A stretch of 64,000 nt of DNA, taken from NCBI GenBank assembly GCA_009801085.1, contig VNWV01000002.1, positions 2,852,001-2,916,000 on the forward strand. The letters are read 5' to 3'. The notes under the pieces were generated by a model that searched no databases, was not told where the DNA came from, and saw nothing but the letters and a program-made list of their open reading frames with translations. Below, one piece after another: positions 2,427 to 44,280 of the stretch (position 1 is the stretch's first letter; each line of letters starts with the position of its first letter). This DNA comes from Lasiodiplodia sp. COLG20 (taxonomy: Eukaryota > Ascomycota > Dothideomycetes > Botryosphaeriales > Botryosphaeriaceae). Position numbers and translations under genes: made by a program.

Positions 2427-2959
2427 TTTGCTGAGGCTCGAGCTGATGTCGTGGGCAAGTCACTGAAAGACCGCTTTGCATCAAGTTCATATCTAATTTA
2501 TTCTGCATGGCACGATCCTCCGGCACCTCGCGAACTTTCAGATGCAACACTGATCACGTCAAATTCCACGCCATGTACGTACAGATAACGCTCGATACTT
2601 TCACCGAAAACCGGCGGGTGGCGCATGGCCATTGCGACGGAGACACTTCTTGATTTCCCACTGACAAGCGGATAAATCCGTTTTTTCGGGCGGCATTACA
2701 GGAGCAGTTGGCATCACCAAGCCTTTCTTGGGTCGTTGCTTGGTGAGTAAGAAGTAAATGGTAGATCATTGCCGCAAACGAGAGGGTGATGCCATTGAGC
2801 CCCTCAAACGCGCAACCCCGCAAGCGAGCATCAACGGGTAAAAGACAACCGAACTATCGGAAACCGATAGGCGTTGTCAGCCGGCAAAAGTATGCTCTAT
2901 TCAACACCTCTAAATCTCCACGCCTTTACTCACAGTCGGTTCTTCAGGTTGCCAACGCC
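2427..2959. promoter_or_regulatory. Divergent promoter between MFS transporter and PL26 exolyase
   Basis: A 533-bp intergenic region separates the two start codons. An open frame runs into it from the PL26 side, but the segment before the methionine at 2960 does not resemble the enzyme family, so I treat it as leader and promoter. It contains the palindrome listed separately. Confidence 0.6.
2854..2870. promoter_or_regulatory. Perfect inverted repeat CTATCGG-AAA-CCGATAG, candidate Zn2Cys6 site
   Basis: Seven-base arms match perfectly around a 3-bp spacer, giving a CGG-N3-CCG core about 90 bp upstream of the PL26 start. Inverted CGG triplets with a fixed spacer are the usual target of fungal Zn2Cys6 binuclear-cluster regulators, and placement in a shared promoter suggests co-regulation of both genes. 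Binding is inferred, not shown. Confidence 0.45.
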
Positions 2960-5743
2960 ATGTCCTCCGGATCGAACTTCGTCAGATGGCTGGAGCCGCC
3001 GGATCATTACCAGTACGGAACAACATTCGGGCTACCTTGGGCACGAGGAAAATACAAATCAGGTGATACCACATACACTTGCAGCACCCACACCGGCGAA
3101 AATATTCCACTTCAGTCTTGGGTTCTCGCCTACTGGCCAGATGACTCGATCAAATGGACGGCGCATGCAATTCCTGCCGGCAATGCACCAAAAGATGGAT
3201 ACATCGTTCATGCCACAGTAAACGATGAAAACAAGCCATCTCAAGAACCACCAAAAGGCATCAGCATCCAAGACTCCGACGACTCCATCACCGTCTCGAC
3301 CGGAGCAATCACCGCCACCTTCCCCAAAAGCGGACGCACCCTCATCTCCAGCATCACCAACAACACCGGCCGCACCGTCAGCACAAACGGCCACCTCGTC
3401 CTGCTCACCCAGTCCTCCATCCTCGACGGCGACCTCCCATCCGAACCAATCACCCACCACAAACTCACCAGCACCATCACCTCCACCACCCTCGAGCGCA
3501 CCGGCCCCATCCGCACCACCATCAAAATAACCGGCCACCACTCCCATTCCCCTCCCCACCACCACGAAGAAACCCTCCTCCCCTTCACCCTCCGCATCCA
3601 CCTCCACGCCTCCTCCCCCCTCCTCCGCCTGCACCTCACCCACGTCCTCAACCACCCCGTCCTCCTCAACCACGGCCAGCAGCACATCCGCGGCTTGGCC
3701 CTCCGCCTCACCGCCCCCCTCTCTCCCGCGCCCCCCTACGACCAGCACATCCGCCTCACCACCGCCTCGGGCGCCACCCTCCTCGCCGAAGCCGCACAGG
3801 GCCTAACCGGCCTCTGGAAAGACCCGGGCGCAGCAGTGCGCGCGGCGCAGGTATCCGGACAGCCCGTTCCACCACCGCAGACGTGGGATGCTGAGGGTGA
3901 GATGTCGGGCGGAGAGGGGCTGCGCTGGGTCCCCGTGTGGCGGCAGTGGCGGCTGGCGCAGGTAGGGACGGATGGGTACACGTTGCGGAAAAGGACGGGG
4001 GAGGGGAGGGCGTGGGTGGGGGTGCCGCCGAGGGCTGGGGGGACGAAGGTCGGGGGAGAAGGAGAAGGGGGAGAAGGGCGGAAGGCCGGGGGCGTGGCGT
4101 ACGTGGGCGCGGCGGGGAGGGGCGGGGTGGCGGTTGGTGTGCGGTGGTTTTGGGAGAGGTGGCCGACGGGGTTGGACGTCCGTGCTGGTGCTGGCGGGGA
4201 CGATGATGGGGAGGGAGAGATTACGGCTTGGTTGTGGGCGCCGGAGGGCGGGCCGATGGATTTGCGGCCGTGGCGGGGGAGTTTGGGGGAGGAGGGCAGT
4301 TACGACGAGCAGTTGGAGGCGATGCGGGTGACGTATGAGGACTGGGAAGAGGGTATGGGGAGTGCGGAGGGCGTGGCGCGGACGAGCGAGCTGTGCTTGT
4401 TGGCGACGGATGGGACGCCGGGCGAGGAGGAGCTGGCGGCGCTGACGAGGTGCGTGCGGAGCCCGCCGGTGCTGGTGGCGCGTTCGGAGCGGATTCGCGA
4501 GACTGGGGCGTTGGGGACGTACTGGTGTCCGTCGTTGCAGGAGCCGGAGTGTGGCAGCTTGCAGAGCGATCTGGATTCGAAACTGGACTTCCTGTTCAAC
4601 TTTTACAAGGGGCAGGTGCAGCAGCGGAAATGGTACGGCTTCTGGGACCACGGAGATATCATGCACACTTATGATGCAGACCGGCGGACCTGGAGATATG
4701 ACGTCGGCGGTTATGCTTGGGACAACTCGGAGCTGTCCCCAGATCTGTGGCTCTGGTTGTATTTTCTGCGCACCGGTAGGGTAGACGTATATCGCATGGC
4801 CGAGGCGCTGACCAGACATACCGGAGAGGTTGATGTGTATCACCTGGGGAAGTATAAAGGTCTTGGGACGCGACACGGTGTACAACACTGGAGTGACAGC
4901 TGCAAACAGGCCCGTATCTCTAATGCCTTGTACCGAAGGTTCTTCTATTATCTCTCTGGGGGAGACGAGAGGATTGGCGACCTGATGGAAGAAACACTAG
5001 AGACAGAGAAGGCTTTCCTTACCTTGGACCCATACCGTAAGGTGAGGAAAGATAGGGCTACATATCGGCCTGACCCAAAGGCACTCACCATCTCTCTGGG
5101 CACAGACTGGTCTGCGCTTGCTGCCGCGTGGTTCATTGAATGGGAGAGACGCGGCTCCTTGTGGGAGGAAGCAAAAAGCAAATTGCTCACCACAACAAGG
5201 GGGATTGGTTCCCTCGCCAATGGCTTTGTTACTGGCCAGGTGACTTACAATCTTCTCACGGGAGAGATTTTCCCGCCGGTTGAGGACCCAGAAAATAAAG
5301 GCGTTGTGAAGGTATCCCACCTCTCGGCCATGTTCGGACTGTTTGAGATTTGTGCCGACATCCTAGATTCACTGGCAACAGATACACCTCCAGGGTTCAA
5401 AGAAGCCTGGCTATCTTACTGCCGCTATTTCAACGCTCCAGCCGACGAGCAGATCGAGCGGTTCGGAGTCAGTTTTGGGAACCTACAGTTAAAACAAGGT
5501 CACTCTCGACTGACTGCATACGTCTCCCGAGAGCTTGATGATCCATCTTTAGCCTCGCGTGCCTGGAAAGAGCTCTTGTCCAGCGATGGATACAGAGCGG
5601 ATGCACCATGGACTACTCAAAGGATTGACAGTGATGGACCAACAAACTCAGTTGAGGAAGCTCCGTGGATTTCAACCAACATAACCTCCTTATACGGGCT
5701 GGCAGCAATTCAGAATTTAGCTATCATAGGAAAGAGTATCTGA
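2960..5743 (+). CDS. Exo-rhamnogalacturonan lyase-like protein, PL26 (PcRGLX/YetA-like), 927 aa
   Basis: Single exon of 927 residues from the ATG at 2960 (MSSGSNF). The N-terminal part (PWARGKYKSGDTTYTC near residues 25-40, then SWVLAYWPDDSIKWTAHAI) matches the beta-sandwich domain of the PcRGLX/YetA-like family. The C-terminal half holds an all-helical catalytic-type region rich in aromatic residues (KWYGFWDHGDIMHTYD, GYAWDNSELSPDLWLWLYF, GTRHGVQHWSD). Family enzymes cleave the rhamnogalacturonan-I backbone from its end by beta-elimination, releasing unsaturated products. No signal peptide is visible, which suggests an intracellular enzyme acting on imported oligomers and agrees with the adjacent transporter. 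The middle (residues about 190-450) is low in complexity and may be a poorly conserved linker. An upstream in-frame ATG at 2789 exists but adds unrelated residues. Confidence 0.82.
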   Translation: MSSGSNFVRWLEPPDHYQYGTTFGLPWARGKYKSGDTTYTCSTHTGENIPLQSWVLAYWPDDSIKWTAHAIPAGNAPKDGYIVHATVNDENKPSQEPPKGISIQDSDDSITVSTGAITATFPKSGRTLISSITNNTGRTVSTNGHLVLLTQSSILDGDLPSEPITHHKLTSTITSTTLERTGPIRTTIKITGHHSHSPPHHHEETLLPFTLRIHLHASSPLLRLHLTHVLNHPVLLNHGQQHIRGLALRLTAPLSPAPPYDQHIRLTTASGATLLAEAAQGLTGLWKDPGAAVRAAQVSGQPVPPPQTWDAEGEMSGGEGLRWVPVWRQWRLAQVGTDGYTLRKRTGEGRAWVGVPPRAGGTKVGGEGEGGEGRKAGGVAYVGAAGRGGVAVGVRWFWERWPTGLDVRAGAGGDDDGEGEITAWLWAPEGGPMDLRPWRGSLGEEGSYDEQLEAMRVTYEDWEEGMGSAEGVARTSELCLLATDGTPGEEELAALTRCVRSPPVLVARSERIRETGALGTYWCPSLQEPECGSLQSDLDSKLDFLFNFYKGQVQQRKWYGFWDHGDIMHTYDADRRTWRYDVGGYAWDNSELSPDLWLWLYFLRTGRVDVYRMAEALTRHTGEVDVYHLGKYKGLGTRHGVQHWSDSCKQARISNALYRRFFYYLSGGDERIGDLMEETLETEKAFLTLDPYRKVRKDRATYRPDPKALTISLGTDWSALAAAWFIEWERRGSLWEEAKSKLLTTTRGIGSLANGFVTGQVTYNLLTGEIFPPVEDPENKGVVKVSHLSAMFGLFEICADILDSLATDTPPGFKEAWLSYCRYFNAPADEQIERFGVSFGNLQLKQGHSRLTAYVSRELDDPSLASRAWKELLSSDGYRADAPWTTQRIDSDGPTNSVEEAPWISTNITSLYGLAAIQNLAIIGKSI

Positions 5744-6267: not shown

Positions 6268-8442
6268 CTTTGTGGAAATCTATTCAAATTAGCTTGTGGT
6301 CTCTCTTCGTTGAAAAAGGCAACGAATTGGCCGATGACTTTGGCAGAACTTGATAGGGAGGAAGAAAATTTGAGAGCAAGTTGCTGGTGTAAGAAGTGTA
6401 GAAAATATAAAAGTACTGGAAACCAGTGAACTATCAGAGCAGGTATACGAAATAACTTCTTACTGAAGGACCAATAGATGAATAGGTAAAAGTAGGGCAA
6501 GGCTTGTACCTATATATTCTTTCCGAAATAGAGCAGGATAATGGCAGGTGGTGTCTAGGTGGGGCCGGAGATGCGTCGCCAATCGTACTAGAAATGGCGC
6601 AGCGAGGCAGCCTGTAACCGGAGTTTGTGACGGCAGGCCTCTGCCTCTAAGGATCCAAACACCAAAGAGGGTGGAAGCCTGTTGAAAGGGTTTGCCTTGA
6701 GTGGGTACAAGAAGAGGGTTGGGAACGAAGTGAGTAAGTATCGCGACTGAGCACTGCATGTGCGAAGGCCGTGTTACCATTAGAGTCCAAATTCTATTGT
6801 TGAAGTTGACCACGAAGGTCAAAGCTATCTAAGGCGTGTGTTTATATACATGTAGGAGAGTTGACGATCTGGTATTTTGATCTGTTTGATCTGTGGTTCC
6901 CGGTGGGATTTGCCACAGAGCAGACAGAGCACTTCCTTGGCGTCACGTGGGTCCTTTTCACGCCGTACGAGTGCACCCCACTTCTTCCCTTATTCTGTTG
7001 TTCCTTAACCCCGTGGAGGCTGTGCCGTAACAGAGTTTAGTTGTGTAAGATGGCTCATGGGCATCTCATGTTAAAGCTGCTTACTTAAATATCAGTCAAG
7101 ACCCATCCATCTCGCAAGTAAACATTTCGGCACAACTGGCGCCAGCTCATGCGTACATGCTGTTCGCTGGTAGGCAAGCTGGGCCACCGTTAAGGATAGC
7201 ATCACGAATAACCTCTTACACGAAGGACCTGTGCAGAAGTCCGTGTCAAAGGCCGTGTGATAGGAGATTCAGGACTGAGTAGTGCGTAAAGTGTTTTAGA
7301 TCTGCTGCGGGATAGAAGAATCGCTGTTATGACCTTTTTGAATTATCCTTTTGTCCTTTGCAGTGGCGTAGTTTGATCACCATCTCCATCTTGTCCAGTG
7401 AATAGGCACCATCCAGAACCTCGTCCGGGGTGAAGTAGAGGCTGAAAAGGAAAGGACAAAAAAAAAAAAGGAATGACTGTCGATGAAAATGGCAAAACTG
7501 AACCCTGCTACATGCAGGTTAAGCTCAGAAAGACTCCTTGGGACCGTCTTTTTTGTCTTCCCTAGCTCGTTTTCGAACCTTCGACCTCTTTATTACCCAC
7601 AGAGGACGGGTGGAAACTTGGACTGCCTTACATAAACCTTCAGGCTCTCATTTAACCAAGCACCACCTCTTCGAGCGTCACTAGCATATCAGAAGGGCTT
7701 GACTTACTGGCTTATATGCTGCAACAGCCTCCCAGTAACCTAAGATGGAAATAGGGTCCGNCCCACCTGTTTTTTTTTAACTTTCCAATTAACAATTTTA
7801 AGCTTCGAGACCCCCTTTTTCCCTTGGCGATCACACAGGACTGTGGGTCTCGGGGGAGGATTCGGCCATGCCGAAACCCCGTTGACCTCGCCGCAAGCGG
7901 TGTCTAAGACATGGATTGGGGGCGCGGCGCCAGCCGAACGGGCGGCTTATGTAGGGTCACGAGCAGGGATCTCTGCAGTGGTTCGGGAGCAGCAGTGCTA
8001 GCGTTGATAAAAAAAAAAATTGGGGGGGACGTTTCATGGTTCGCTTCTCTTGGGTGGAAGGGAAGCGGCATTGCGGTGGGAGGAGGGAACGGCGGAATAT
8101 CCTTGGAGGGGATTTTTTTTTTGCTTTTTCTCTTTTTTTTATTGGCGACCCTGGTTCCGTTGTTTCGTACTCAGGGTTACTATATAGCGTTGCAAGTCAA
8201 CTCTGGGTCCGGGTGTTGGAGCTTTTATTTGTGTCATGTCGTTTTTATTATCCCCATTCGATTTTATGCAGGTGTTCATATTTTCCCACGCCCTTGTTGA
8301 CAAGCGGCAGAGCTATGGCAGCGGGTATGATCAAATCTCAACGCCTTTGAGTGCAAAAGGACATTGCGGCTAAGGGCCAGTGCCGAGAAGAAAAGGACCT
8401 TAGAATGGAGAGGGGGTTTCACAATGTTTACGAGAAATTATC

Positions 8443-8588
8443 CGACTTACGTGGACCATTGAAGCTACCGTCTGGACGTGAACAATTATGAGTTCAACAT
8501 CTTCGTCCGGATGGTAAATCCAAGTATTCACGTAAGTCGAATTAATAATTATACATTCACACCCAGACGGTAGCTTCAACTACCCACG
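8443..8588. mobile_element. Hairpin repeat element, copy A (MITE-like, composite)
   Basis: Inverted 33-base arms lie at 8450-8482 and 8556-8588 and agree at 27 positions; the core TTGAAGCTACCGTCTGG is identical in both. A second, perfect 11-base inverted repeat (CGACTTACGTG, 8443-8453 and 8529-8539) is nested in the same segment, so this copy looks composite or rearranged. The outer arm sequence recurs in copies B, C and D. No coding capacity. It lies about 180 bp beyond the stop of the rvt gene. Confidence 0.7.
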
Positions 8589-8770
8589 ACATCACAGATT
8601 TCATAGTTGAAGTGAGGTTCCTTCCATTGTCTGCTTTGGTATCGTACAGTGAGTAGTTAATGTTGTTTAAGTAATGTAAGCGGCGTAGTGAGTGCTATAA
8701 TACAAAAAGGGAAAGTCATATACACGGTAATACACTTCGTAATCGTGCCGTCTGTTCATCGCCTCAGTTT

Positions 8771-11599
8771 TCAACCCTGCCACCTGACCCTCTCGCTCCG
8801 CAAGATGCTGACCAAACCAAGCGGCAGAAGACCCTTCTCGCAGATAGCCAAGCCTCCGAATCGCTTCTCCGTCTCGCCAGCGTAAAGGGCAAGGATCCAC
8901 TTCCAGTAGGGGCTCATCTGGGCCCAATAAGAGTTCATGCCGGGGGTGCTGAACCGCTCATCCGGGAGCTTCTTCAGGGCAAAGGCGACCTTATTGGGCA
9001 GGTCAACGTGTTTCTCTTCGATGGGTTTCATGCAACGCTTGTACGCTGCGCTGAGCTCGCTCGAGGTTTGCTCGACGAAGCGCATGTACTCGTCCAGGCT
9101 CATGAATGATTCGTCTTCGATGTTCTTGGGTGTCGTCTGGTCAACCGGGACCTCGCCAGCTTCGAAACGTTCCTTGGCGTCTTCGTAGCCCTCTTCCTCC
9201 CTTTCGAGCGCCAAGTTGATCTCGTCGGTCTTGTACTCACGTACAGAGCGGCGACGCATCGCATTCAGCTGGATAAAGGGGTTCAGCACGCCGAGGCCAC
9301 CCAGCTCAACCGGGAAGTGGAAGAAGGCGTCCGGAATCGGACGACCACCTTTGATAGCTTCGGTATTGGCAAACCGCTTCGTGATGACGTTGCGAAGGTA
9401 CTCGACCACGTTGGCAGCGCCCAAGTCAGCGAAGAGGGAGCGCTGGATACGCTCGAACGCCTCGATGCACATTGCTACATGCTCGCGGCCCAGACAGTGC
9501 GCTGGCTGACCAAAGTTGGTCGAGAAGAAACGCCCAACATAGCCGTTCCAGGCTTGCACCCACCCAAAAACACTGTCGCATGACTTCAGCTGACGCTGAA
9601 GCTCCTCGACGTGTTCATCCACTTGCTCCTGGTCGATAACCCAGCGGCGTTCATTGGGATCCAGCTTCAAGAAGCCCCATCGAACCGTTCCCTTTGGCAG
9701 CGCCTGATGGAGCGGGGCCAAGGATGACTTTTCGGGGCTCACAATCTTTACTGCTGCAGTCTTCTCCTCGTTCAGTTCCAGACCCATGACTGTGGAAAAC
9801 TCCTGCAGAGCCTTCCACGCCTGGACGCAAGTGCTTTCCTGGCCCCAGAACCAGAGGTCGTCATGGAAGCGGTACAGAACAGCACCGTCGGTCTTGCGAT
9901 GAACAGCGAAGTCAAGACAGAACAGAACCGCCTCGCTGAGAGCATCTGCGAGTACGTGGCCCATGGGAATGCCGTTCTTCCGGACCTTGGGCTCGGCGTT
10001 GGGGCCGTCTTGGGTGAAGATCAGAGGAGCGGCAAGGAACTTCTTGATGAAGTCAAGCCAGCCTTGGTTGAAACCAAAGTACTCGAGCACCGCAAAGATG
10101 GTCGCATGAGGGAGTGCCGGACCGAACCACTTGAAATCGCTGGCCAGGATTGTGAATTCACCATACAGCTTGGTGTTGATGAGCATCTCGGTGGAGGCCA
10201 GGCGAAGCAGCTGCTGTTTGATGGCAAGTGGGGACTTGCTGTCTGCGGCGTCTTCCTCGGCATTGTCCGCATTGTAGTCGCGGTTGCCTTCGTTCACTTT
10301 TGATGGAAGCTGTGTCATGAAGAAGTCATCCCGGAACTCGGAGAAGCGAATGTCACGCACCGAGTCCTGTCCGCGCGGCGTTTGAATGTTATCTTTGCCC
10401 AGGAAATAGTGGCGACGTTGCCTGTCCACCCTTTTCATGGCACGGAAAGGAGCTTGAACCCAAGCACCGGAATAGTAATGGGCCTTGAAAGCATGCTTTA
10501 GCATGACAGCCATGTGAGCACCGATGACGTGCACAAGAATGGCGGTGTGGATCTCCTCATCCATGTACGCGCGATACTTTCCGTTCAGCTGACGACGGAG
10601 GAGAACGGGAACAGGTCCAGGCCACTTCCAGTTCTGCAGGGACACGAAGTCCATGCGGAGTACATCGACCATTTCTTTGATGACCTCCGGACGGGATTGC
10701 AAGTCAACAAGAATCTCGCGCTTGGGGCCGGTAAAGAGATCGCCCTTCAGGATGCCCTTGATGGCCCAACGGATGGTAGGTTCGCTGATATCGATATCCT
10801 TTTCCCAGTATTTTTCAACGTCCTCGCGCAGGTGCTCCAGAGGAGTCTTGTCGGCCCGTTTTGATTTCTTGGTAGCAACGAAAAGGTCGTCGAGGTACTT
10901 CTTGATGGCAGCAGTGTCGATCTTGGGCTCGTGGAAGATGTATTGCTCGAGCGTTTGGCGCTGCTCGTGCATTTCTTTGCGTCCAACCATGTCGAAAGAA
11001 TCGGAACCACCGTCGGAGGAACTTCCAGAGGGGTCTTCCTGGGCCTTGGGCGAATGCCCGTTGAGCTGCTTCACGGCGGCGTTTGGGTTCTCAATCCACT
11101 CAGTGACCAGTCTGCCGAAGAGATCGGCGTAGTTGTACTTGTCCGTCTGGATGTTGAGGTTCTGTTCAAGCCAGTCCTTCCATTCGGCCAGCAGAGTGGG
11201 TGACACGGAAGGATCGTGACGAGCCTGTTCAAGGAAGCGTTTGATGTTCTTCACAGCGTCGCCGCCTTCATCGACTGTGATGTGGTGCTTCTCGAAGCCA
11301 GCCATCAGAATTCTCACCTTTTCAGCAGCATCGTCGGTCTTGCTGGAGGCGTCCAACATTTCGGCCTTCTGGGCCTCAAAGGCCTGCTGGTTCTCGGCCA
11401 GCTTGGCGAGCTTCCGGTCGGTGACATGGCGCAAAGTGGAGGTAACAGCTCCTCCAGACATGGTGATGGGTTTGGTGACGGTCGAGAAAGGCCGATCGTT
11501 TGGGGCTGGGGGATGAATGCCTCTACCTCTGCCAAAGCCTCCTCTGCCTCTGAAGAAGCCTCTTGTTGCTCTGCCTCGGCTGTTTGCTCTGGAATCCAT
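8771..11599 (-). CDS. rvt: rvt: non-mobile cellular reverse transcriptase-related gene (942 aa)
   Basis: Single-exon protein of 942 residues. The N-terminus is RG-rich (RGFFRGRGGFGRGRG, about residues 13-27), followed by a helical, probably coiled-coil region. The polymerase core shows the RT motifs in order: motif A SDFKWFGPA with Asp near 488, motif B GIPMGHVLADALSEAV near 543, motif C RFHDDLWFWG near 577-586 (catalytic Asp pair kept), motif D GLELNEEKT and motif E VRWGFLKLD near 640. A long insertion lies between the finger motifs and motif A. There is no endonuclease, RNase H, gag or terminal repeat. This matches the rvt family of domesticated reverse transcriptases described from fungi, rotifers and some bacteria. 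I chose the ATG at 11599, not the in-frame ATG at 11803, because a TATA box and a CT-rich tract lie between them. The biological role of the family is unresolved. Confidence 0.85.
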   Translation of the reverse strand: MDSRANSRGRATRGFFRGRGGFGRGRGIHPPAPNDRPFSTVTKPITMSGGAVTSTLRHVTDRKLAKLAENQQAFEAQKAEMLDASSKTDDAAEKVRILMAGFEKHHITVDEGGDAVKNIKRFLEQARHDPSVSPTLLAEWKDWLEQNLNIQTDKYNYADLFGRLVTEWIENPNAAVKQLNGHSPKAQEDPSGSSSDGGSDSFDMVGRKEMHEQRQTLEQYIFHEPKIDTAAIKKYLDDLFVATKKSKRADKTPLEHLREDVEKYWEKDIDISEPTIRWAIKGILKGDLFTGPKREILVDLQSRPEVIKEMVDVLRMDFVSLQNWKWPGPVPVLLRRQLNGKYRAYMDEEIHTAILVHVIGAHMAVMLKHAFKAHYYSGAWVQAPFRAMKRVDRQRRHYFLGKDNIQTPRGQDSVRDIRFSEFRDDFFMTQLPSKVNEGNRDYNADNAEEDAADSKSPLAIKQQLLRLASTEMLINTKLYGEFTILASDFKWFGPALPHATIFAVLEYFGFNQGWLDFIKKFLAAPLIFTQDGPNAEPKVRKNGIPMGHVLADALSEAVLFCLDFAVHRKTDGAVLYRFHDDLWFWGQESTCVQAWKALQEFSTVMGLELNEEKTAAVKIVSPEKSSLAPLHQALPKGTVRWGFLKLDPNERRWVIDQEQVDEHVEELQRQLKSCDSVFGWVQAWNGYVGRFFSTNFGQPAHCLGREHVAMCIEAFERIQRSLFADLGAANVVEYLRNVITKRFANTEAIKGGRPIPDAFFHFPVELGGLGVLNPFIQLNAMRRRSVREYKTDEINLALEREEEGYEDAKERFEAGEVPVDQTTPKNIEDESFMSLDEYMRFVEQTSSELSAAYKRCMKPIEEKHVDLPNKVAFALKKLPDERFSTPGMNSYWAQMSPYWKWILALYAGETEKRFGGLAICEKGLLPLGLVSILRSERVRWQG

Positions 11600-11727
11600 G
11601 TCAATGGCTGGGCGCGGTTTCTCGTACGCTGCTGTGGCTGACCTGAAACTGTGCGGTTCGAGCGAGGAGACGGCGCTGTGATGGTAACGATGATGAGGAA
11701 GAAGAAGATGAGAGGAGCTGTAGCGGG

Positions 11728-11734
11728 ATTTATA
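11728..11734 (-). promoter_or_regulatory. TATA box of the rvt gene
   Basis: TATAAAT on the minus strand, 130 bp upstream of the ATG at 11599 and followed by a CT-rich tract (about 11685-11712), the usual fungal core-promoter arrangement. It argues for translation starting at 11599. Confidence 0.5.
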
Positions 11735-12046
11735 CGCCAAGGAAGCTGCGAGGTTGGTGGAAGGCACGCCGCAAGCGCTGCGGCAAACTAATGCGGACAC
11801 CATGGCGATCGCCGTGAGTCAATGCGCCGCGGCTTCCTACAGCTGTTCCGCGCGAAACATGACTTTCTTCACCGCAGAGCAAACTAGGCGGGTGCATTGT
11901 CGTCAGCTCAAGTAGGCACAGCAGGCAGCGGGGCGCAGGCAGCACCTCCAGGCAACAGGCAGGAGAAATGGGTCCTTGAAGCGTCGGGACAGATCCCTGC
12001 GCCAATCTCTCGCTAGCGCCCCTGTGCCAGCAGTTTTCACCCATGT

Positions 12047-12222
12047 CATGGGTAGTTGAAGCTATCATCCGGATGTTAATATCGAATTGACAATTATACA
12101 TTCACGTCTGACATAGCTTCAATTGCCCATATATGTTGTTTTACCAAATAAAATAAAAAACAGGGTGGAGGCAGAATGATGCTATTCTTTGCGCTAGCTT
12201 TCGGCTGCAATACCCCACCGCA
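12047..12222 (+). mobile_element. Hairpin repeat element, copy B (hairpin plus tail)
   Basis: Left arm 12047-12076 (CATGGGTAGTTGAAGCTATC start) pairs with right arm 12101-12131. An A-rich stretch and a tail follow; the tail (GATGCTATTCTTTGCGCTAG, 12178-12197, then CGGCTGCAATACCCC) is shared with copy C and, in reverse complement, with copy D. It lies about 450 bp upstream of the rvt start, so copies A and B bracket that gene. Confidence 0.72.
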
Positions 12223-12352
12223 AGATCATCACCGTCTCCCCGCCACCTGCATCTTCGGTGTCGCCAATTGCGCCCCATCCTCACACGACACCGCACAGCT
12301 GCCTTCCCTGGAGCTTAGCTTTGCACAACCAAAGTCTTGCACTGATGACGTC

Positions 12353-13307
12353 ATGACCATTTGCAAGTGAGTGCTGCAGCATGTCTCTTCGTGCCATCTC
12401 CGACCAACTAACCTTTGCCCACAGAATCGTCCAATGCGGTCGCCGCATCCCCAGTGCTGTGATCCGAGTGCGTGGAAAGCCCTGGAGGCCACATCACGCA
12501 ACGACCGGCGTCAACCCCTCTCGTCAGATCCGTTCCTACGCCTCGTTCAGTCACAGCATCTCTGTTAACCTTGATGCGGCGTCGCGCTCGATGGCCGAAC
12601 CGCAGATTCTTGCGGGATGCCGAAATGTCCAGCTCGCTCTGACAGACAAAGACTGGCCGAAATGGGATCCCGATGCAAAACCCCACGATCCAAGGTGCCA
12701 CTCCAAGCTTTCGCACATCATTGGTGCCCTCGATTCCAGTCCAAATATTGATTTTGTATTTCTGGCCCTGTCCGACATACTCAAGCTGCCTCTTGTCCAC
12801 CAGTCACTTCCAATCAAGCAAGAACGTACCCCCACCACCATTTTCAGCACCATTGCCGTCCATGTAGAACCCGTGGACCTCGGTTTCTGGAATCTTCCCG
12901 ATTACCCCTCGATATTCATTAGGGATGTGGATACTATGCGTGTGTTGCAGCAGGCTCGGGCCTACAAAAGGGATGCTGTTGCCTGGCAGCGAGTCATTGC
13001 AAATGCGAGTCCTGTCTACCAGGCGTATGACTACACAGCCAGCTTCCACGCGATTGACTTGGCCATCAGGAACAATATTCCATTGGCGTCTATGCGCACC
13101 GTCGATTTCGGTCCCTATGGTTCTGGGTCATGCGCGACCAGCGATTTGGACTCTTTGAGCACCTGTTTTGCGGATGACCTAGCCCATAATATACGCCATT
13201 TCAAGCTCGGAAATCCATGGTTTCCTAACCTGTATGATCACATCAAGAAGGAAAGTGGCGGGGCTGTGAGTTCGAAGCTTGGATACAAATCAGAAGATAC
13301 AGCATAA
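12353..13307 (+). CDS. Orphan protein, possibly mitochondrial (298 aa)
   Basis: Proposed exons 12353-12366 and 12425-13307. The 58-bp intron has strong signals (GTGAGT donor, ACTAAC branch site, CCCACAG acceptor), giving a 298-residue protein. Another ATG at 12381 lies inside this intron and would give a 308-residue version; the methionine at 12592 is a third option. The first 60 residues are rich in Arg and Ser with almost no acidic residues and include RQIRSYASF, like a mitochondrial presequence. The rest is a soluble alpha/beta-type sequence with PKWDPDAKPHDPRCHSKL, IDFVFLALSDIL and YPSIFIRDVDTM. I recognise no domain. It sits between the rvt gene and the GT25 gene, just beyond hairpin copy B. 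Confidence 0.55.
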
Positions 13308-13577
13308 GCTTCGTCTCCTGATTTCCTCAAACGATGGGTCCGCACCATCCTGTCAAAATCCTGGATGACCACGTCTCTCTTCATCCTTTCCACCTTGTTT
13401 CGACCATATACTACTGACAAGCAGCGCCAGGCATGCTTTCCCAAAGGCCAATAACTTGCCTGTTTGCTTGGTTTCCCCAACGGGCTGACCACGTTTGCAC
13501 CAACCCGCCGCACTCACTAATTGAACATGTTTTCGCATTACTCTATCAATTCCAGTGCCAAAAGCTACCAGGACCCA

Positions 13578-14882
13578 TCAGAACTCTACAGGATCCTCAC
13601 CGTCTCTAAACAAGTCAATGTAATCCGTCCTCCCGTCCACCAACCTCGGGAAGTTCAACCGCGTGCTCCAACGAACATTCAGGGTGAAGGGCTGGGCATT
13701 GTAGTCGTCGCCGTGGTCGGAGATGTCGCTGAAGGCGAGCTTGGAGCCGGCGGGGCGGTGGTGCTGGAACAGCTGGGGCTGGACGGTGAGGCAGGTGCGC
13801 AGGGGGAAGCCGTCGACGCCGTCACAAATGGCGCGGAACATCATGTCCGCGTTGTCCGTCATGCGGTGCACGCCCATCTCGTACAGCAGCCGGCGCGCGC
13901 CCGGCTGCGACAGCCCGTAGCCCAGCGTGCAGGTGCCGACGCGCACCCGCGACACGACGCGCGTGTGCGCCGGGTACTCGCGCCGCAGCTCGTCGCTGCC
14001 GTACAGCTGGTCGAGGTGCTGCGGCTCCGGCACCGTCGAGTCGTTCGCCAGCACCACCCGGCCCAGCGGCGCGTTGTGGTCGGAGGCGTGCGGGAAGCGG
14101 ACGCCGCAGTGGCCGAGCCAGAGGACGTCCCACCGGTCGATGTCGCCGTAGGGCGAGGTGGTGGGCCGCGTGGTTACGTTGTCGCTGAGCATGAAGTTCG
14201 CGGCGTGCGCTCCTGCTGCCGGAGAGGGGTACGTGGGATCTAGAAACTGATCGGACGTGCCGGCGAGAGGTTGGACGAGCATTCGCGAGGCTCGTGCAAA
14301 GTCTCGCAGCTGTGATTTTATGCGCAAATCCCAATCGGCATCGTCCTCGAGGACGAGTGCGGTAGTGAGGTTCTGCTCGACGATTCTGTCTTGTGTGTCA
14401 GCCAGTTCGATTATTGAGTCGAAGTCCTGGCGTACGTACTTTCTCATCACATTAACATGTGCGCGCCAGGCACCTAGGTTCCCTTTGTTCAGGTTTGTCT
14501 CCTTCCCACCGGGCGGCAAGGTTTTCTCCAGGACATCAGTGACACCATCGATGTATTCAATATCTAGGTCTGATAGGGCCGCAGCTAGGGACATGGAATC
14601 CCGATGGTCTGTCCGTGATGGTAAATTAATTACGAAAATTTTTTGAAACTGCAGTTTTGTCAATCAATACTGTGACGTCAAGACAGCTGGTATACTGACT
14701 CCAAGTGTTCGATTAAAGACATCTCCGAGGTTGTCAGATGTATCTGAAGTAGTCGAAGAAGTTGTTTTCAGGGGCTGAAGAGATGAATTGTGATTGCTGA
14801 AGCCAAATAAAAGAAAGAAAAATATGGCAAGGCTACCAGCGCCGGCCAATGCACTTCGTATGTGGAGAGAGGGTGTAGGCAT
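13578..14882 (-). CDS. Glycosyltransferase family 25 protein, type II membrane (417 aa)
   Basis: Two exons, 14700-14882 and 13578-14648, joined across a 51-bp phase-0 intron (GTCAGT...CTGCAG); the spliced product has 417 residues. The N-terminus has a single signal-anchor helix (about residues 10-28, AGAGSLAIFFFLLFGF), so a Golgi type II topology is likely. The catalytic domain starts FQKIFVINLPSRTDHRDSM, the typical GT25 opening, and carries LVLEDDADWD with the acidic motif for metal and nucleotide-sugar binding. Later features are DVLWLGHCG and TLGYGLSQPGARRLLYEM. The family includes LPS-type glycosyltransferases and collagen galactosyltransferases; the sugar and acceptor are unknown. Fungal members of this type are common but largely uncharacterised. 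Confidence 0.87.
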
Positions 14883-16291: not shown

Positions 16292-16777
16292 TGCGTGAGG
16301 GTTGTTCAAGGCGTCTTTCTTTGGTGGTATTGTTGAAGTGGCTGAGAGTTGTCAGTGGCACAAGGAAACGGGTACGCTTGAGAAGAGGCTATCATGAGGT
16401 TAAAAGCTGTTGACTGCAGCCTGGCAGGTGCTGGAAATGGAAGGTGCAGAAGCCGTGGCTGAGTCACAAGATTGATATCATAATCAGCCCTAGTGGAGGA
16501 TTGCATCGCTTTATTTAGATTGGGTTGCACTCGTGATTGCAATGGTGCCTATCGGTTGATTAGGCACCGCGTAGGATGCGACTGATGTGTCGTAGGACGA
16601 AAGGCGGGGAGCAGATATCGTGGCCGAGCTAAGGCCAGAGCTCGGCCCACCTTCCCTCTTAACGCGTTTCTCGTGCGCGACGCGTCTCCCCGACGCGTCT
16701 TCCTCGCGCAACCCACATCCCTACACTTTGAGGCTACATTATTCTGGCGCATTGCGCCACACGCCCGCTATACAACC

Positions 16778-18295
16778 ATGAAGACCTACTCGCGGCTCAA
16801 ACGGGCATCCCATCCTTCCTCCGAGCCGCTAACCAAAAGACGCCGCATCCTCGACGACGACGCCTTATCCCCATCCAGCGACGCCGCCCTCCTCCGCAGC
16901 GATGCCGCCTGCTCACCACCTCGCACCAGCCCACCTCGCGAAACCACGCTTGTGTCGTCAACACCACCTTCTTCTCCACCCCCACCTGTTCAAGCGACTG
17001 CCGAATCCACATCCCCGCTACATCTACCAAAGCGCAAAACCACTTTCTCTTTCTTCACCCGCAGAGCAGAAGCAGCAGCAAGAACAGCGACAACGACTAA
17101 AACCAGCCCCCAGCCCCTAGCCGAGCAGCGCAACGCCCACAATGCTCAAGCCAGCAGCCCCGCGTCCTCTCCAACCATCCCGGCCGTCGTACCCTCGGGG
17201 AAAAGCAACGGCAAGGGCAGAGATAACAAGCAGCAGCCGCAACGACGTCTGACGCAGCTACAGCTCGACCTCGGTGTCACTCCAGTCCAGCGCACGTGCA
17301 AGACGTGCGGCATGGCGTACGTGCCGTCGAACGCTGAAGATGCGGCGCTGCACAAGCGCTTCCACGCCATGAACGTCGGGGGCGTGGATGTGGGCAAGGG
17401 CTTTTTCCTGTCGAAAAGTGGAGGCGGGGGAGGGGGAGGGGGAGAGGTGGTATGGGAGAAGGGTGTGGATGGGGATTTTGTGGTTGCCGTGGGAAGAAGG
17501 GGAAAGGCGGCGGCGAAGACGAGGGTGAGGAAGGTGTTGGAGGTTGTGGAGAGGGAATTGGGAGCGGTGGAGATCCCGGAAGACGAGTTGTGGGACCAGC
17601 TTGTGGTAGAGGGAGAGGCGGGAGGCAAAGGTGCACGGAAAGAGGAGGGAACGAGAGACGGACAAAAGACGGATGTCAACGATGGGGTTGAGCCCAAGCC
17701 GCAGAGAGCTGCTGGGGGCAATGGAAACAGCCAGAGCAGAGCACGTGGGGAGACTGTGACGCGTGCAGATCGCTTCAAGGCATATCTCTACATCAGAGGC
17801 TCAAAGTGCATTGGCCTTTGTCTCGCGGAGCGTATCACCGAAGCACACCGCGTCGTAGCTCCACCCATCGACAGCCCAAATCTATCAAACTCGACAGTTG
17901 TGGCAACAATGGAGGATTCGGGAGGCCAAAAGGACTCCAAGGACACCACTCAACCACAAACCGACACCCCGTCCAACCAGCACTCCACAAAAACTCCGCC
18001 GACAACCACACCTGGAACGCTCACGACCTCCCCCACTACGCACCCAGCCGATCTCGGCATCTCGCGCATCTGGGTATCCTCCTCACACCGGCGGCACGGC
18101 ATCGCCATCGCACTCCTCGATGCCGTCGCTCGTGATTTTTGCGCCTACCGCTGCGAAGAATACGACGCCAACGGTGACGAGAACGGCAAGCGTCTGCCAA
18201 AAGAGCGCATCGCTTTCAGCCAGCCCACGGACGGCGGGGCCAGACTGGCGCGGAAGTGGTTCCGCGCGGAGACCGGATGGGGCGTCTATTGGTGA
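16778..18295 (+). CDS. eco1: Sister-chromatid cohesion N-acetyltransferase Eco1/ESCO (505 aa)
   Basis: Single exon of 505 residues. A long, basic, disordered N-terminus (MKTYSRLKRA..., KRKTTFSFFTRR) is followed by the conserved QLDLG segment and a C2H2 finger, CKTCGMAYVPSNAEDAALHK then RFH, near residues 173-195. The C-terminal acetyltransferase part contains LGISRIWVSSSHRRHGIA and RIAFSQPTDGGARLARKWF (about 424-497), diagnostic for Eco1/ESCO. The enzyme acetylates cohesin Smc3 during S phase in the nucleus. A poly-Gly stretch after the finger is encoded by a G-run (about 17421-17450), and the region between finger and acetyltransferase domain is long and poorly conserved. The start at 16778 is the first ATG that leads directly into the conserved MKTYS-type opening. 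Confidence 0.9.
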   Translation: MKTYSRLKRASHPSSEPLTKRRRILDDDALSPSSDAALLRSDAACSPPRTSPPRETTLVSSTPPSSPPPPVQATAESTSPLHLPKRKTTFSFFTRRAEAAARTATTTKTSPQPLAEQRNAHNAQASSPASSPTIPAVVPSGKSNGKGRDNKQQPQRRLTQLQLDLGVTPVQRTCKTCGMAYVPSNAEDAALHKRFHAMNVGGVDVGKGFFLSKSGGGGGGGGEVVWEKGVDGDFVVAVGRRGKAAAKTRVRKVLEVVERELGAVEIPEDELWDQLVVEGEAGGKGARKEEGTRDGQKTDVNDGVEPKPQRAAGGNGNSQSRARGETVTRADRFKAYLYIRGSKCIGLCLAERITEAHRVVAPPIDSPNLSNSTVVATMEDSGGQKDSKDTTQPQTDTPSNQHSTKTPPTTTPGTLTTSPTTHPADLGISRIWVSSSHRRHGIAIALLDAVARDFCAYRCEEYDANGDENGKRLPKERIAFSQPTDGGARLARKWFRAETGWGVYW

Positions 18296-29804: not shown

Positions 29805-30968
29805 TCAGATCTTCTCAGCCCACCAAGCACCGAGTTCCAGGCACTCTCCGCTCGAGGCACCTTTCTGCTGAAGAAGATCGTCCATCATCCAGCCCCACCA
29901 TCTCTGCCATTCCTCTTGGTTCTTTCCACTGACTTCCTTCAACAATGGCTCCAAGCTTTCAATGAACTGAATGACGACGGTGAGCGCAGTGCTTCTCAGA
30001 GCAGCTTGCTCCTCGGTCAAAATGGAGTCTTCGCCCGATTTCAATTTCGCTGCCAGCTCGCTGTCCCTGCGCTTCAGCGGCCTCTTCTCACCACTCATTT
30101 CTCTTTCCCAGCGCATCTCCCCCAGGGGAATGGCCACTCGGCGATAGTCGACGTCCTTTAAAGTCTCAGTTTCCTGCAGGAGCAACTGCAGGATACGCGA
30201 GCACGGCATCGTGTACAGCTGCCGCTTTTCGACAGCATCCTGTATCCAGTCGCTCGCGTCTTGTAGGTACTTGTTTTGACAGCTGGCGAATGGCGTCGAA
30301 GGCGAAATCAAGAACGTCGCAGTCTTCGCGCACTGATCTTCATCCCCCTGATTGTGGCGCAGCGGCGGGGGAGGATGGGGTAGAAGGGAGCGAATGACAG
30401 AGTCGACGTCCCAGCACTCCAGGTCACCTCCCTTCCTGACGCACCGGATAAACTCCTCCAGCGCCTTTTGGGAGGGAACGCCAGTGGGGATCACGAGTCC
30501 GAGATCCTTGCAGACCACGATATCGAACTCTTCATCCTCAAAGGGCAAGGGGAACCTGCGCAGGTCATGCTGGATGAAGCGCCACTTGACACCCTGCTTG
30601 TTCAAGTCGGCAGCCATAGGGACGATGTCGATGCCGGTAAACTCGACGTCGGTGAAGCCGAGTCCGGAGAGATACTCGTGGGCCAGCGACGTCCAGTATG
30701 CGCTCCCGCACGCGATCTCCAGTACCTTCTTCGGGGCTATCTCCTTGATGCGCGGCGTCAATATGGGCTTGCCGACTGCGGTGACGGCGAGCAGTGTGGA
30801 CAGGTTCTGGCGCTGCAGCTCAGGGAGGTCGCAAGGGAGTGGATAGGGCAGATCTTTGAGGTAACGGCGGCCATGGCGGATGACGAAGGGGGACAGCAGC
30901 GGCTGGTGGCTGTCGCCGCTGCTGTGGGTGGACTGGGAGCTGGATGTGGAGCCGCGCGCGACCTCCAT
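29805..30968 (-). CDS. SAM-dependent methyltransferase domain protein (387 aa)
   Basis: Single exon. I start at the ATG at 30968 because its context (GCCGCCATGG) is ideal; the frame stays open further upstream but only with non-ATG codons until a stop near 31100. A Ser-rich N-terminus precedes RHGRRYLKDLPYPLPCDLPE. The methyltransferase fold has motif I VLEIACGSAYWTSLA (normally E/D-x-G-x-G), then FTGIDIVP, WRFIQHDLRRFPLPFEDEEF and DIVVCKDLG. The Ala-Cys-Gly-Ser variant of the glycine loop is seen in a fungal group annotated only as SAM-binding proteins. The C-terminal half has a helical region ending WWGWMMDDLLQQK. Target unknown. Confidence 0.82.
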   Translation of the reverse strand: MEVARGSTSSSQSTHSSGDSHQPLLSPFVIRHGRRYLKDLPYPLPCDLPELQRQNLSTLLAVTAVGKPILTPRIKEIAPKKVLEIACGSAYWTSLAHEYLSGLGFTDVEFTGIDIVPMAADLNKQGVKWRFIQHDLRRFPLPFEDEEFDIVVCKDLGLVIPTGVPSQKALEEFIRCVRKGGDLECWDVDSVIRSLLPHPPPPLRHNQGDEDQCAKTATFLISPSTPFASCQNKYLQDASDWIQDAVEKRQLYTMPCSRILQLLLQETETLKDVDYRRVAIPLGEMRWEREMSGEKRPLKRRDSELAAKLKSGEDSILTEEQAALRSTALTVVIQFIESLEPLLKEVSGKNQEEWQRWWGWMMDDLLQQKGASSGECLELGAWWAEKI

Positions 30969-32497
30969 GGCGGCCAATGATGAGCTCACGTTGCTGGATG
31001 CGACGATGGAATTTCGACTCAGCAGGCCCTCCAAGTCGTCTGCGGCAGCGGTTCTGGGGCGCTGTAGCTGGGAGGAGGGGACATTTTGGTAGCGGTACTA
31101 GTCTCGGGCTTAGCATTAAGCCATGATCCGCGTAGTGGAAACGGCCCCCTGATGCGTGCAAAGGGTGATTCTTTACCATGTACCATTCCATCCTAAGCTG
31201 TCGGCCCGTGGCCCGTATCCCAGTCTATCGACCTTCCCCACTGTATCGGACTTATTAAGGCGGCGCTCGAGCGTCGGTGAATGGCCCGCTGGCCGCGGCA
31301 CGGCGGAATGCGAGAGAGCTGCCTGGAGAGCGCCGCCCGAGGCATGGACGGCGGGACGAGTGCGTTGAGCGCGGAGGGTGGCGGGCGAGGAGCGTGAAAA
31401 GCGTGCGCAGCTGTGAATCGCGGCGAGCTTCAGCCTCAGGTGAGACTGTTCGAGCTTCACATTCGCAGCCCCTCGCGCCGACGTATGAGCCTCAGCGAAG
31501 CCGAGGTGGCGACGCTCCAATCAGCCTGGGTGCGAGAGGCCCGCTGTGGCGCCTGAGCTTGACTTGACTGCGACCGTCTCTCACCAGCCCAAGGCGCTGG
31601 AGCTGCCGCGACCGGGAGGGTGACAGCTACTAGCAGAGAGCGGCGTCCTGTCAAAGGCCCAGCAAACGCAGCAGCGTCACGCAAGCGCAGGCGCATGAAC
31701 AGGTGATGGCAGGCATTGCGCGCGAGACGCCGAGGGCCTGATGATCCCACCAGGCGGGCCCGTCCCGCCGCCGCTGCGGTCGCGCTCAGAAGCGGGCGGG
31801 CCAAGGTCGTCTGGCCTGAGGCCGCGGGTCACGTGCATTCCCGATCTGTGCTCGTCTGTGAGCTGGAGACTACCTCCAAGCCCGCCGCCAACCACCCCAT
31901 CGTGCACCTCCACTGCCCACGCCATTCTTTGCGCCTGCGTCCCGCTCCCATTGATTCCAGCTCGGCCGCCCGACTCCCGCGCTGCTAGCACCGACGCCCA
32001 GCCCAGTGCCCTGCTGCCCCAAAGGTCCGTCCGGCGAAACAGTCTCGTCATCCCAGACCACCCGCCTCCCAGCCAAACACTGCTCCGGCTCTGGCTCTTG
32101 CTCACGCGTCTGTCTTGCTCTAGCTCCTCGCCGCCCGTCACTGCGACCGCATAACATCCGGCGACCCTGCTCCCCCCCGCCACCGCGCGCAAACTCCCCA
32201 TACCCTCCAGCCTCGGTCCCGCCCGCACAAACACGCCCGCGCTGCTCGTTTGCCTGGCTGACACCTTGGCCTTGTTGGCGCGCCATCGCGGACCGCGCTG
32301 CGGCGGATCTTCTCCTGCATTCATTTGATGAGTGTCGGCTGCGCGGTTGCTCATGTTCAGGCGAAGAAGACACCACCGTCCCCAGCCTCTTCCGCTCACT
32401 TAACGCCCGCACCGAACACCCTCTGCATCCCCGCACCCCCATTCATAGCGGCATACGGCTTACCCGGCACATCCTCGAGGTTATCTCTCCACTGTAG
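30969..32497. promoter_or_regulatory. Divergent promoter between methyltransferase and CCR4 genes
   Basis: About 1.5 kb of GC- and CT-rich DNA. Open frames in it are short or purely compositional. It probably contains a long CCR4 5' leader. No motif could be assigned. Confidence 0.4.
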
Positions 32498-42799: not shown

Positions 42800-44280
42800 G
42801 TGGTATGCTAGAAGGCCCAGAATTTGTAGAGAAAGCTGTGAAATCCGTAAATAGCTAATCCGGCGTCAGTATGTGCGTGTAAAGACTGGAGGATCAGGTC
42901 GAAGCATAAGCTGAATTTATATGCCGGCTACTAGCTTGGCGAGCCGCAGAAAAGGGCCCGTTGACACACCCATCAGATGCGTGGCATACAAGACATAGAG
43001 TTTCCTGACTGTCAAGTTGTGGTTTGATAATGGGGCTCTCCAGATGACGCCAAATGGGCAGCGAGCAGCCACGCCGACCTCTCCGATCAAAGGCTCGATC
43101 GCCATCCGCCCTCCCACGCACACCCAATCAGCAGCCCCACCCCCCCACACCTATTCGAGCGGCGCGCAGCACGGCACGCCTCTTCCAGCCCGCACGCCGC
43201 CGCGACCCTCCCACCCGCACGCCTCCTCCAACCCGCACGCCGCGGCAACCCTCCCCGGCCGAAGCAGCGAACGTTTGGTGTCGTCGGAATAGCTGCCTTA
43301 TTGCTCGATTCCACCGGTGTGGCCCTTGTAAGCCCCTCCTGCGAGCACTAGGGATGCAGCATGCAAGCCTTTTCGACGAACCGCCCGCTGTTAGAAAGCA
43401 AGCCGCGCAAAAGCAGGCAAACTTCCAGAAGGTACCAAGCAAAGAACAGCCTAGCCATTAAAATACTGGCAACTGAATACAATCACCATGCGATCAAGTC
43501 TAACTTCTGCCCAATGTCTGAAGCCCTTGCAGCAGGTATGGGGTAGCAGTGATACCCAATTATTTGAGGGCCCGCTCGCCGGCCACATGCGAGCAAGGAC
43601 GACGACATGCGGTAGACTCACGTCAGACGCTCTGGCGGACAGCCGACACATGTCCTAGCAGGCATCAGACGACCGGAATGCCACATTGGTGTGGCTCGGT
43701 GGTTTTACCCTGCATCTGTACGAAGCTTTGATCTTCCGGATGCAAGAGATAGTGTGGGCACCAATGACACCTATTTCCAGCCAGCGGCTCAGTTCTGCGC
43801 TGGCTGCGACCCGCCGGCCTCTAGCTAGGTTCATCAAGCATAGCGATTCTTCCCAGCTGAAGAAATATCCCGGGCATCAGTGTATAACAAGAATGCCTCG
43901 ACGACAGCTTCCACTGGCCAGGGAAGTCTAGTGCAAGATGATCGCAAAAGATTATTTACTCTGAAACTTACAGTATTGCAGCATTTTCAACTTCCAGCCT
44001 CGCACAGGCCTGAGCTTCGGCGTTGAGGCCGCAGTGGGAAATGAAGTAACATCTTCAACAAGGTTAGTACTGAGTCTCGAGCCATCGCGAGTATTCAGGG
44101 TGCTTCTGCAGCATCCAGGGCCAGACAAGAGTGTTGTCGAGTTAGAACGGTGAGATCTCGTACAGCTTAGGCATCCTCACAGATGAAATTATCGCGTTGG
44201 GTTGATGGTGCCTGGCTAGAGCTGCTTACAGGTAAGTATTGCAGCCGACAGTCAGTGTGAATTTATTTTCCGCTTATAGC

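What the first reader, a model, noticed from the sequence alone, without database searches (positions are those of the whole stretch)
8771..11599. A domesticated rvt-type reverse transcriptase with an RG-rich N-terminus
The sequence shows complete RT motifs A to E in order with the catalytic Asp residues kept, a long insertion between fingers and motif A, and no endonuclease, RNase H or repeats. This is the hallmark of the rvt family, cellular reverse transcriptases kept by selection outside transposons. Their natural template and role are unresolved. The RG-rich head near residues 13-27 suggests direct RNA binding.
Basis: partly seen in the sequence, partly recalled or inferred. Interest (0 to 1): 0.75.

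Follow-up and report, generated by a model that had tools for sequence, protein, structure and literature searches.

The report
Fungal rvt-type cellular reverse transcriptase gene
This is an intact, single-copy fungal member of the rvt family, a little-understood class of reverse-transcriptase-like cell genes found in fungi and a few bacteria, and its active site carries a glycine that may explain why such fungal enzymes can build RNA rather than DNA.

Summary
Window 8771-11599 (-) encodes an intact 942-aa protein with RT motifs A-E, catalytic Asp kept, a large insertion between fingers and motif A, an RG-rich head, and RVT_1 as its only significant Pfam domain. It is single-copy, while 52 of 55 scored RVT_1 matches in the same genome contain stops. 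The rvt reading is supported: the best library match is UG37 (E 1.6e-61; group II RT 2.7e-8), the model that a Herpetosiphon aurantiacus ORF (HaRVT, as recalled) matches end to end, and our protein aligns to that ORF over nearly its whole length. Bacterial carriers are rare (11 of 1316 genomes). New, as far as I could search: the RT steric-gate position (motif A Asp+5) is Gly in 188 of 188 fungal-type sequences and Tyr/Phe in 23 of 23 bacterial-type ones, fitting recalled reports that fungal RVT prefers NTPs and bacterial RVT dNTPs. The RG head recurs in four listed relatives. dN/dS of the fungal gene was not testable here; Herpetosiphon orthologs gave 0.066-0.153. No Neurospora RVT sequence was retrieved.

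The parts
8771..11599 (-). rvt gene: 942-aa reverse-transcriptase-related protein (stop codon included)
   Evidence: ORF; RVT_1; UG37 over residues 53-780; single copy
11600..11803 (-). in-frame upstream extension to an earlier ATG; probably not translated from the main transcript
   Evidence: open frame but codon score -0.085 against +0.496 for the main ORF on which the score was trained; TATA-like box inside it
11729..11734 (-). TATA-like box followed by a CT-rich stretch; candidate core promoter
   Evidence: sequence; no other ATG between it and 11599
11462..11599 (-). RG-rich head, residues 1-46, predicted disordered
   Evidence: pLDDT about 30; RG cluster at the N-terminus in 5 of 188 sequences, 3 of those without an internal start Met; against: codon score does not look coding (-0.298)
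10700..11461 (-). N-terminal all-helical domain (residues 47-300), starting at the Met from which most listed relatives are annotated
   Evidence: aligns to the start of bacterial rvt proteins; model pLDDT 82.7, pTM 0.53, no PDB match at E<=0.001
10562..10612 (-). fingers beta-hairpin (residues 330-346) with R335, R343
   Evidence: strands 330-336 and 342-346; both Arg 188 of 188
10232..10462 (-). insertion 'loop 2a' (residues 380-456) between fingers and motif A
   Evidence: model secondary structure; spacing in relatives
10106..10153 (-). motif A (residues 483-498), catalytic D488
10121..10123 (-). codon of G493 (motif A Asp+5, the RT steric-gate position)
   Evidence: Gly 188 of 188 fungal-type; Tyr/Phe 23 of 23 bacterial-type
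9944..9982 (-). motif B (residues 540-552)
9842..9877 (-). motif C (residues 575-586), RFHDD
   Evidence: D580 and D581 188 of 188
9758..9793 (-). motif D (residues 603-614), NEEKT
   Evidence: K613 188 of 188
9662..9682 (-). motif E (residues 640-646), WGFL
   Evidence: G642 188 of 188
8774..9622 (-). thumb and C-terminal region (residues 660-942), alignable to the Herpetosiphon protein to residue 931

Best explanation
SHOWN: the gene is an intact, single-copy rvt-type gene, a cellular reverse-transcriptase-related polymerase homologous over nearly its full length to the bacterial UG37/rvt protein, with a complete catalytic core, loop 2a, and matching N-terminal and C-terminal regions. INFERRED: as reported for other rvt proteins, it works as a non-templated (terminal-transferase-like or protein-primed), probably multimeric nucleotide polymerase that is induced and useful when protein synthesis is blocked or amino acids run out. 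In this fungal clade the aromatic steric gate of motif A is replaced by an invariant glycine (G493), so the pocket should accept ribonucleotides, and the product is more likely an RNA tail or short RNA than cDNA. The RG-rich head of this branch probably helps hold RNA.
For: UG37 E 1.6e-61; all 45 sequences of the alignment, window included, hit UG37. In Herpetosiphon aurantiacus the fungal profile matches one ORF in three colinear pieces, N-terminus, RT and C-terminus; BLASTP E 2e-34 over residues 52-931; hhalign probability 100 over 740 columns; that ORF scores 1234 bits to UG37. Catalytic residues invariant. Gly at Asp+5 in 188 of 188 fungal-type against Y/F in 23 of 23 bacterial-type sequences; the genome's own telomerase, identified by its RNA-binding domain, keeps Phe there, read by eye from the ORF. 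Single copy. Function from print: N. crassa RVT non-essential, dramatically up-regulated when protein synthesis is inhibited, terminal transferase activity (PMC3520738, one passage); rvt helps against amino-acid starvation and certain antibiotics, non-templated polymerisation, catalytic residues required (PMC10680173, one passage). N. crassa RVT preferring NTPs and being multimeric, and HaRVT preferring dNTPs, are recalled from abstracts not seen here.
Against: No Neurospora RVT sequence was retrieved, so the link to the best-studied eukaryotic protein is indirect. That the Herpetosiphon ORF is the published HaRVT is recalled. The 187 relatives are the best-scoring listed hits (of 205 and 671), so invariance is shown for the nearer part of the family only. 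Another residue (W491 or F492) could serve as a substitute gate. dN/dS, synteny, introns and expression of the fungal gene are untested. The RG head's codon statistics do not look coding (-0.298). In fold, the nearest solved proteins are retrotransposon RTs. A simple heptad count of the N-terminal helix gave no clear coiled coil (best 45% hydrophobic a/d).
Confidence: 0.7

Rival explanations
1. It is an rvt but polymerises deoxynucleotides, as recalled for the bacterial enzyme; G493 is compensated by another bulky residue (W491, F492), so there is no shift to ribonucleotides.
For: Neighbouring W491 and F492 are conserved (180 and 183 of 188); motif C and the rest of the core look like a normal RT.
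Against: The bacterial-type sequences also have an aromatic residue at Asp+4, so it is Asp+5 that differs. The N. crassa protein is recalled to prefer NTPs.
Confidence: 0.2
2. It is a recently immobilised retrotransposon RT (R2/LINE- or group II-like) with no settled cellular role.
Against: No sequence match comparable to UG37; single copy; full-length orthologs in at least three fungal classes; no endonuclease or RNase H domain found; the flanking repeats are self-contained palindromes found all over the genome.
Confidence: 0.03
3. It is an anti-virus enzyme like the bacterial DRT systems, since UG37 is filed among candidate DRTs.
For: UG37 is labelled DRT in PADLOC; a DRT9 chain is the best profile match in the PDB (E 5.8e-4).
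Against: That label is a catalogue class, not a test. In Herpetosiphon the gene lies between ORFs that look like ordinary metabolic genes (my reading, no domain search run on them). Printed work ties rvt to starvation and antibiotic stress.
Confidence: 0.1

Closest known systems
rvt (RVT) genes, fungal branch (Neurospora crassa RVT as reference protein)
   Same: Single-copy cellular RT with loop 2a and no mobile-element parts, in fungi (PMC5718144 and PMC3520738 passages)
   Different: No direct sequence comparison with N. crassa RVT was possible here; whether that protein has an RG-rich head is unknown to me
Bacterial rvt of Herpetosiphon aurantiacus, the same class as UG37 in PADLOC
   Same: Colinear homology over nearly the full length, same motif order, similar fingers-to-motif-A spacing (145 against 150 residues)
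   Different: Tyr instead of Gly at motif A Asp+5; FVDD instead of FHDD in motif C; begins at the shared start without a head; 786 against 942 aa
R2 and LINE-1 retrotransposon RTs
   Different: 10-14% identity; no endonuclease domain found; not repeated
Telomerase reverse transcriptase (TERT)
   Same: Host RT, also present in this genome (L064)
   Different: No telomerase RNA-binding domain found in the rvt protein; TERT keeps the aromatic gate
DRT9 and other antiviral RTs
   Same: RT core with weak profile similarity (E 5.8e-4); protein-primed synthesis as a theme (title of PMC12483538; seen only in listing and one passage)
   Different: Much lower score than UG37 (Drt9 1e-7 against 1.6e-61)

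Membership tests
rvt | Homology to known bacterial rvt over the protein, not only the RT core | tested here: met
   that the Herpetosiphon ORF is the published HaRVT is recalled
[quoted passage not shown]
   Residues 380-456 in the model; spacing 145, bacterial-type 115-189 in 23 rows
rvt | Single copy, not part of a repeat | tested here: met
   One match by protein and one by DNA in the 43.5-Mb assembly
rvt | No endonuclease, RNase H or integrase | tested here: met
   RVT_1 the only Pfam match over its cut-off
rvt | Present in both bacteria and eukaryotes | tested here: met
   Fungi and bacteria
rvt | Intact catalytic aspartates | tested here: met
   D488, D580, D581 in 188 of 188
rvt | Conserved N-terminal domain with a coiled coil that drives multimerisation (recalled) | tested here: inconclusive
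   Domain and its long helix conserved; heptad count unclear; multimerisation not testable
rvt | Purifying selection | tested here: inconclusive
   Not computed for the fungal gene (no relative's DNA at hand); six Herpetosiphon orthologs 0.066-0.153
rvt | Conserved introns and synteny (recalled) | not testable with these tools
   No fungal relative's DNA at hand; this gene shows one uninterrupted ORF
rvt | Induction by translation inhibitors or amino-acid starvation; non-templated polymerisation | not testable with these tools
   Reported for other members
rvt | Direct similarity to the characterised N. crassa RVT | not tested
   Its sequence did not appear among the listed hits
LINE/R2 retrotransposon RT | Endonuclease and multiple copies | tested here: not met
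Telomerase (TERT) | Telomerase RNA-binding domain | tested here: not met
   Absent; found in the genome's separate TERT
DRT antiviral RT | Demonstrated antiviral function | not testable with these tools
   Only the catalogue class UG37

The most novel reading that the evidence does not exclude
Fungal rvt proteins have turned from DNA to RNA synthesis by losing the steric gate: one invariant Gly at motif A Asp+5, where bacterial rvt and telomerase keep an aromatic residue. They then act as stress-induced, non-templated RNA polymerases, directed to RNA by lineage-specific basic heads: RG-rich in some Dothideomycetes, and presequence-like (possibly mitochondrial) in others.
Probability: 0.4. Interest if true: 0.68.

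Novelty: new member of a known kind. Interest (0 to 1): 0.48.

Why it matters
rvt genes are described as the only RT class with both bacterial and eukaryotic members (PMC5718144, passage), and what they make in the cell is still unclear. A single residue that separates all bacterial-type from all fungal-type sequences examined here gives a direct test of whether the fungal branch makes RNA. It also follows that bacterial rvt and UG37, a class filed with antiviral DRTs, are the same thing; I found no held paper that says so (a search for UG37 with reverse transcriptase returned seven papers, none recognisably about this class from their listings; no UG37 in PMC8934634), although two DRT papers do cite rvt work.

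Tried and rejected
Transposon origin: no second copy, no direct repeats within 6500-14500. The inverted repeats at 8540-8592 and 12043-12095 first looked like terminal repeats of a 3.5-kb unit; they proved to be copies of a dispersed palindromic element of about 90 bp, so this was rejected.

Long protein from ATG 11803: rejected as the main form (TATA-like box inside, non-coding codon statistics).

Searches that gave no relatives: plasmids gave 14 records with weak RT-core matches, E 3e-3 to 7e-3, annotated as group II RT, as an RT-domain protein or not at all; phages none; viral contigs by pattern none; bacterial genome contigs by pattern none. The UG37 search was empty in 395 and 386 genomes drawn from the phyla of a Flavobacteriales and a Scytonema genome, where nothing rang in the control genomes either, so this does not prove absence. 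Haliscomenobacter, which I vaguely recall as an rvt carrier, was not specifically searched.

N-terminal domain alone: no PDB match at E<=0.001. Viral structure library: RTs and RNA-virus polymerases dominate the 50 rows shown, with a few other or unnamed entries. No entry titled rvt is among the rows shown; absence there proves nothing.

Mistakes and rows dropped: the row L062 was an antisense ORF; it was replaced by the right frame. One listed relative (P0044) is labelled as a plant, Carpinus fangiana, which I take for fungal contamination; it was kept.

Literature: the two main rvt papers were not seen (PNAS 2011 looked up, not held; Curr Genet 2018 seen only in reference lists; the UG/Abi classification paper not held). 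So the steric-gate difference may already be in print; a search for rvt + steric gate + reverse transcriptase found 0 papers. Other searches.

Full report
WHAT IS THERE. On the minus strand, 11599 down to 8771, lies an uninterrupted 942-codon ORF. The frame is also open to an ATG at 11803, but a TATA-like box at 11734-11729 lies inside that extension, and the first ATG after it is 11599, followed by 11461. A codon score trained on the main ORF gives +0.496 for that ORF in its own frame, -0.085 for 11600-11803 and -0.298 for the RG head, 11462-11599, whose second frame scores +0.091. So codon statistics support neither upstream piece; for the head this is weak evidence, since RG-rich sequence is unlike the globular part that trained the score. 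The host is a Botryosphaeriaceae-like fungus: the closest relatives are an unnamed protein at 97% and two Diplodia proteins at 78-79%.

RT ANATOMY. RVT_1 is the only Pfam domain over its cut-off (E 2.2e-9). I aligned 188 sequences: the window protein and the 187 relatives listed, which show the best 120 of 205 and the best 120 of 671 hits. D488, D580, D581, K613, R335, R343, G493 and G642 are identical in all 188. The AlphaFold2 model made with 45 sequences has mean pLDDT 82.0 and pTM 0.81: residues 1-49 disordered, a fingers hairpin at 330-346, a helical insertion at 380-456, and the motif A strand at 481-489. Foldseek and VIA-align place it nearest R2, LINE-1, group II intron RTs, DRT9/DRT2 and Prp8 at 9-16% identity. 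I read this as the general RT fold.

FAMILY. PADLOC's RT_UG37 matches at E 1.6e-61 over residues 53-780, the next model at 3.4e-8, and all 45 sequences of the alignment, window included, match it. To learn what UG37 is, I searched Herpetosiphon aurantiacus, recalled as the source of the characterised bacterial RVT. The fungal profile finds one ORF there, in three colinear pieces: N-terminus, RT and C-terminus. That ORF (786 aa) matches UG37 at 1234 bits end to end and our protein at BLASTP E 2e-34 (20% identity, residues 52-931) and hhalign probability 100 over 740 columns. So UG37 is the bacterial rvt class, if the recalled identity of this ORF is right, and the window protein is its fungal homolog. 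This agrees with the printed description: domesticated genes on a very long branch with a big loop 2a between RT motifs 2 and 3, the only RT group in both bacteria and eukaryotes (PMC5718144, passages).

DISTRIBUTION AND COPY NUMBER. Named relatives come from Dothideomycetes, Lecanoromycetes and Eurotiomycetes among others (classes by my reading of organism names; many listed relatives are unnamed and one is labelled as a plant). UG37 at E<=1e-30: 8 of 158 genomes in the class of Herpetosiphon, 3 of 377 in the phylum of a Polyangiaceae genome, 0 of 395 and 0 of 386 in two other phyla. A profile of seven bacterial proteins found 16 proteins in the 5.8-billion collection, a lower bound because only 7996 candidates were scored. 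In the window's own genome the gene is single by protein and DNA. Of 55 scored RVT_1 matches there, 52 contain stops; the three without are this gene, a locus carrying a telomerase RNA-binding domain, and one short match not followed up.

STERIC GATE. The residue five after the motif A aspartate is the steric gate of RTs (recalled: Tyr115 in HIV-1 RT, Tyr717 in human TERT). The stretch aligns without gaps: fungal S-D-F-K-W-F-G-P, Herpetosiphon T-D-F-R-D-Y-Y-P. It is Gly in 188 of 188 fungal-type sequences and Tyr (21) or Phe (2) in 23 of 23 bacterial-type ones. The genome's own TERT reads V-D-V-K-S-C-F, aromatic, by eye. Loss of the gate predicts acceptance of ribonucleotides. From recalled abstracts, N. 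crassa RVT prefers NTPs and the Herpetosiphon protein dNTPs. I could open neither paper, and the difference may already be described there. A search for rvt with 'steric gate' in the held library found none.

RG HEAD. A cluster of at least 4 RG in 20 residues lies at the N-terminus in 5 of 188 sequences: the window, P0014, P0017, P0019 and P0140. In P0017, P0019 and P0140 no internal start Met exists, so the head must be translated if these gene models are right. Two others (P0069, P0105) carry RG clusters in loop 2a instead. Most other entries have little or nothing before the conserved block (159 of 188 under 20 residues), so their lack of a head says little.

SELECTION. I had no DNA of fungal relatives, so dN/dS of this gene was not computed. 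For six Herpetosiphon orthologs all 15 pairs give 0.066-0.153: purifying selection in that branch of the family. For the fungal gene there is only the protein-level conservation above.

FUNCTION. Printed: N. crassa RVT is non-essential for growth, dramatically up-regulated when protein synthesis is inhibited, and has terminal transferase activity in vitro (PMC3520738, one passage); rvt genes help bacteria, fungi and rotifers overcome amino-acid starvation or certain antibiotics, with non-templated polymerisation and a need for intact catalytic residues (PMC10680173, one passage). Both are meeting reports. I therefore commit to a stress-induced, non-templated nucleotide polymerase, ribonucleotide-using in fungi; the last step is inference.

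JUDGEMENT. An ordinary member of a known and unusual family, with two useful additions: the fungal/bacterial split at the steric gate, and the identity of UG37 with bacterial rvt.

Noticed in passing
window 8450-8592 and about 12034-12130; also 44280-44334 and 50065-50119: A palindromic MITE-like element of about 90 bp sits on both sides of the rvt gene and is dispersed through the genome: each search scored only the 40 best of 241 and 529 first-look candidates and gave 65 and 67 matching rows, the query itself and both strands of the palindrome included.
   Followed up: partly
relatives' N-termini (P0021, P0036, P0101, P0119, P0014 and others); window residues 31-46: Many fungal rvt extensions carry a mitochondrial-presequence-like motif (R-x-[FYLI]-[HYSTA]) in the last 16 residues before the conserved start: 14 of 25 extensions tested against a shuffle mean of 3.2, none of 5000 shuffles reaching 14. 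The motif was chosen after looking, 4 of 29 extensions were left out and several lichen sequences are related, so it is a lead only.
   Followed up: partly
G000:C78:1677500-1683500 (L064): The genome's telomerase gene: RVT_1 on one ORF and Telomerase_RBD on the next, an RT gene without stops in its RT match besides rvt.
   Followed up: partly
G000 contigs C45, C41, C16, C88, C1 and others: 52 of 55 scored RVT_1 matches contain stops, nearly all TAG or TAA, as expected of RIP-degraded retrotransposons; many lie on C41 and C45.
   Followed up: no
G000:C1:1552510-1552827: A third RVT_1 match without stops (149-aa open frame); its region was fetched (L065) but not analysed.
   Followed up: no
P0069 and P0105, loop 2a: RG-rich segments have also arisen inside loop 2a of other fungal rvt proteins.
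   Followed up: partly
P0202: A JGI protein that looks intermediate between bacterial-type and fungal-type rvt: aromatic gate and MVDD, but a fungal-like DDIWF and a His in motif B; source organism unknown.
   Followed up: no
window 714-59926: Neighbouring ORFs by Pfam: MFS transporter 714-2426, PcRGLX-like protein 2786-5743, ESCO-type acetyltransferase 16673-18295, methyltransferase 29805-31034, synoviolin-like E3 ligase 46563-48593, Nup159/214 propeller 51859-56494, EF-Tu-type GTPase 57032-59926.
   Followed up: partly
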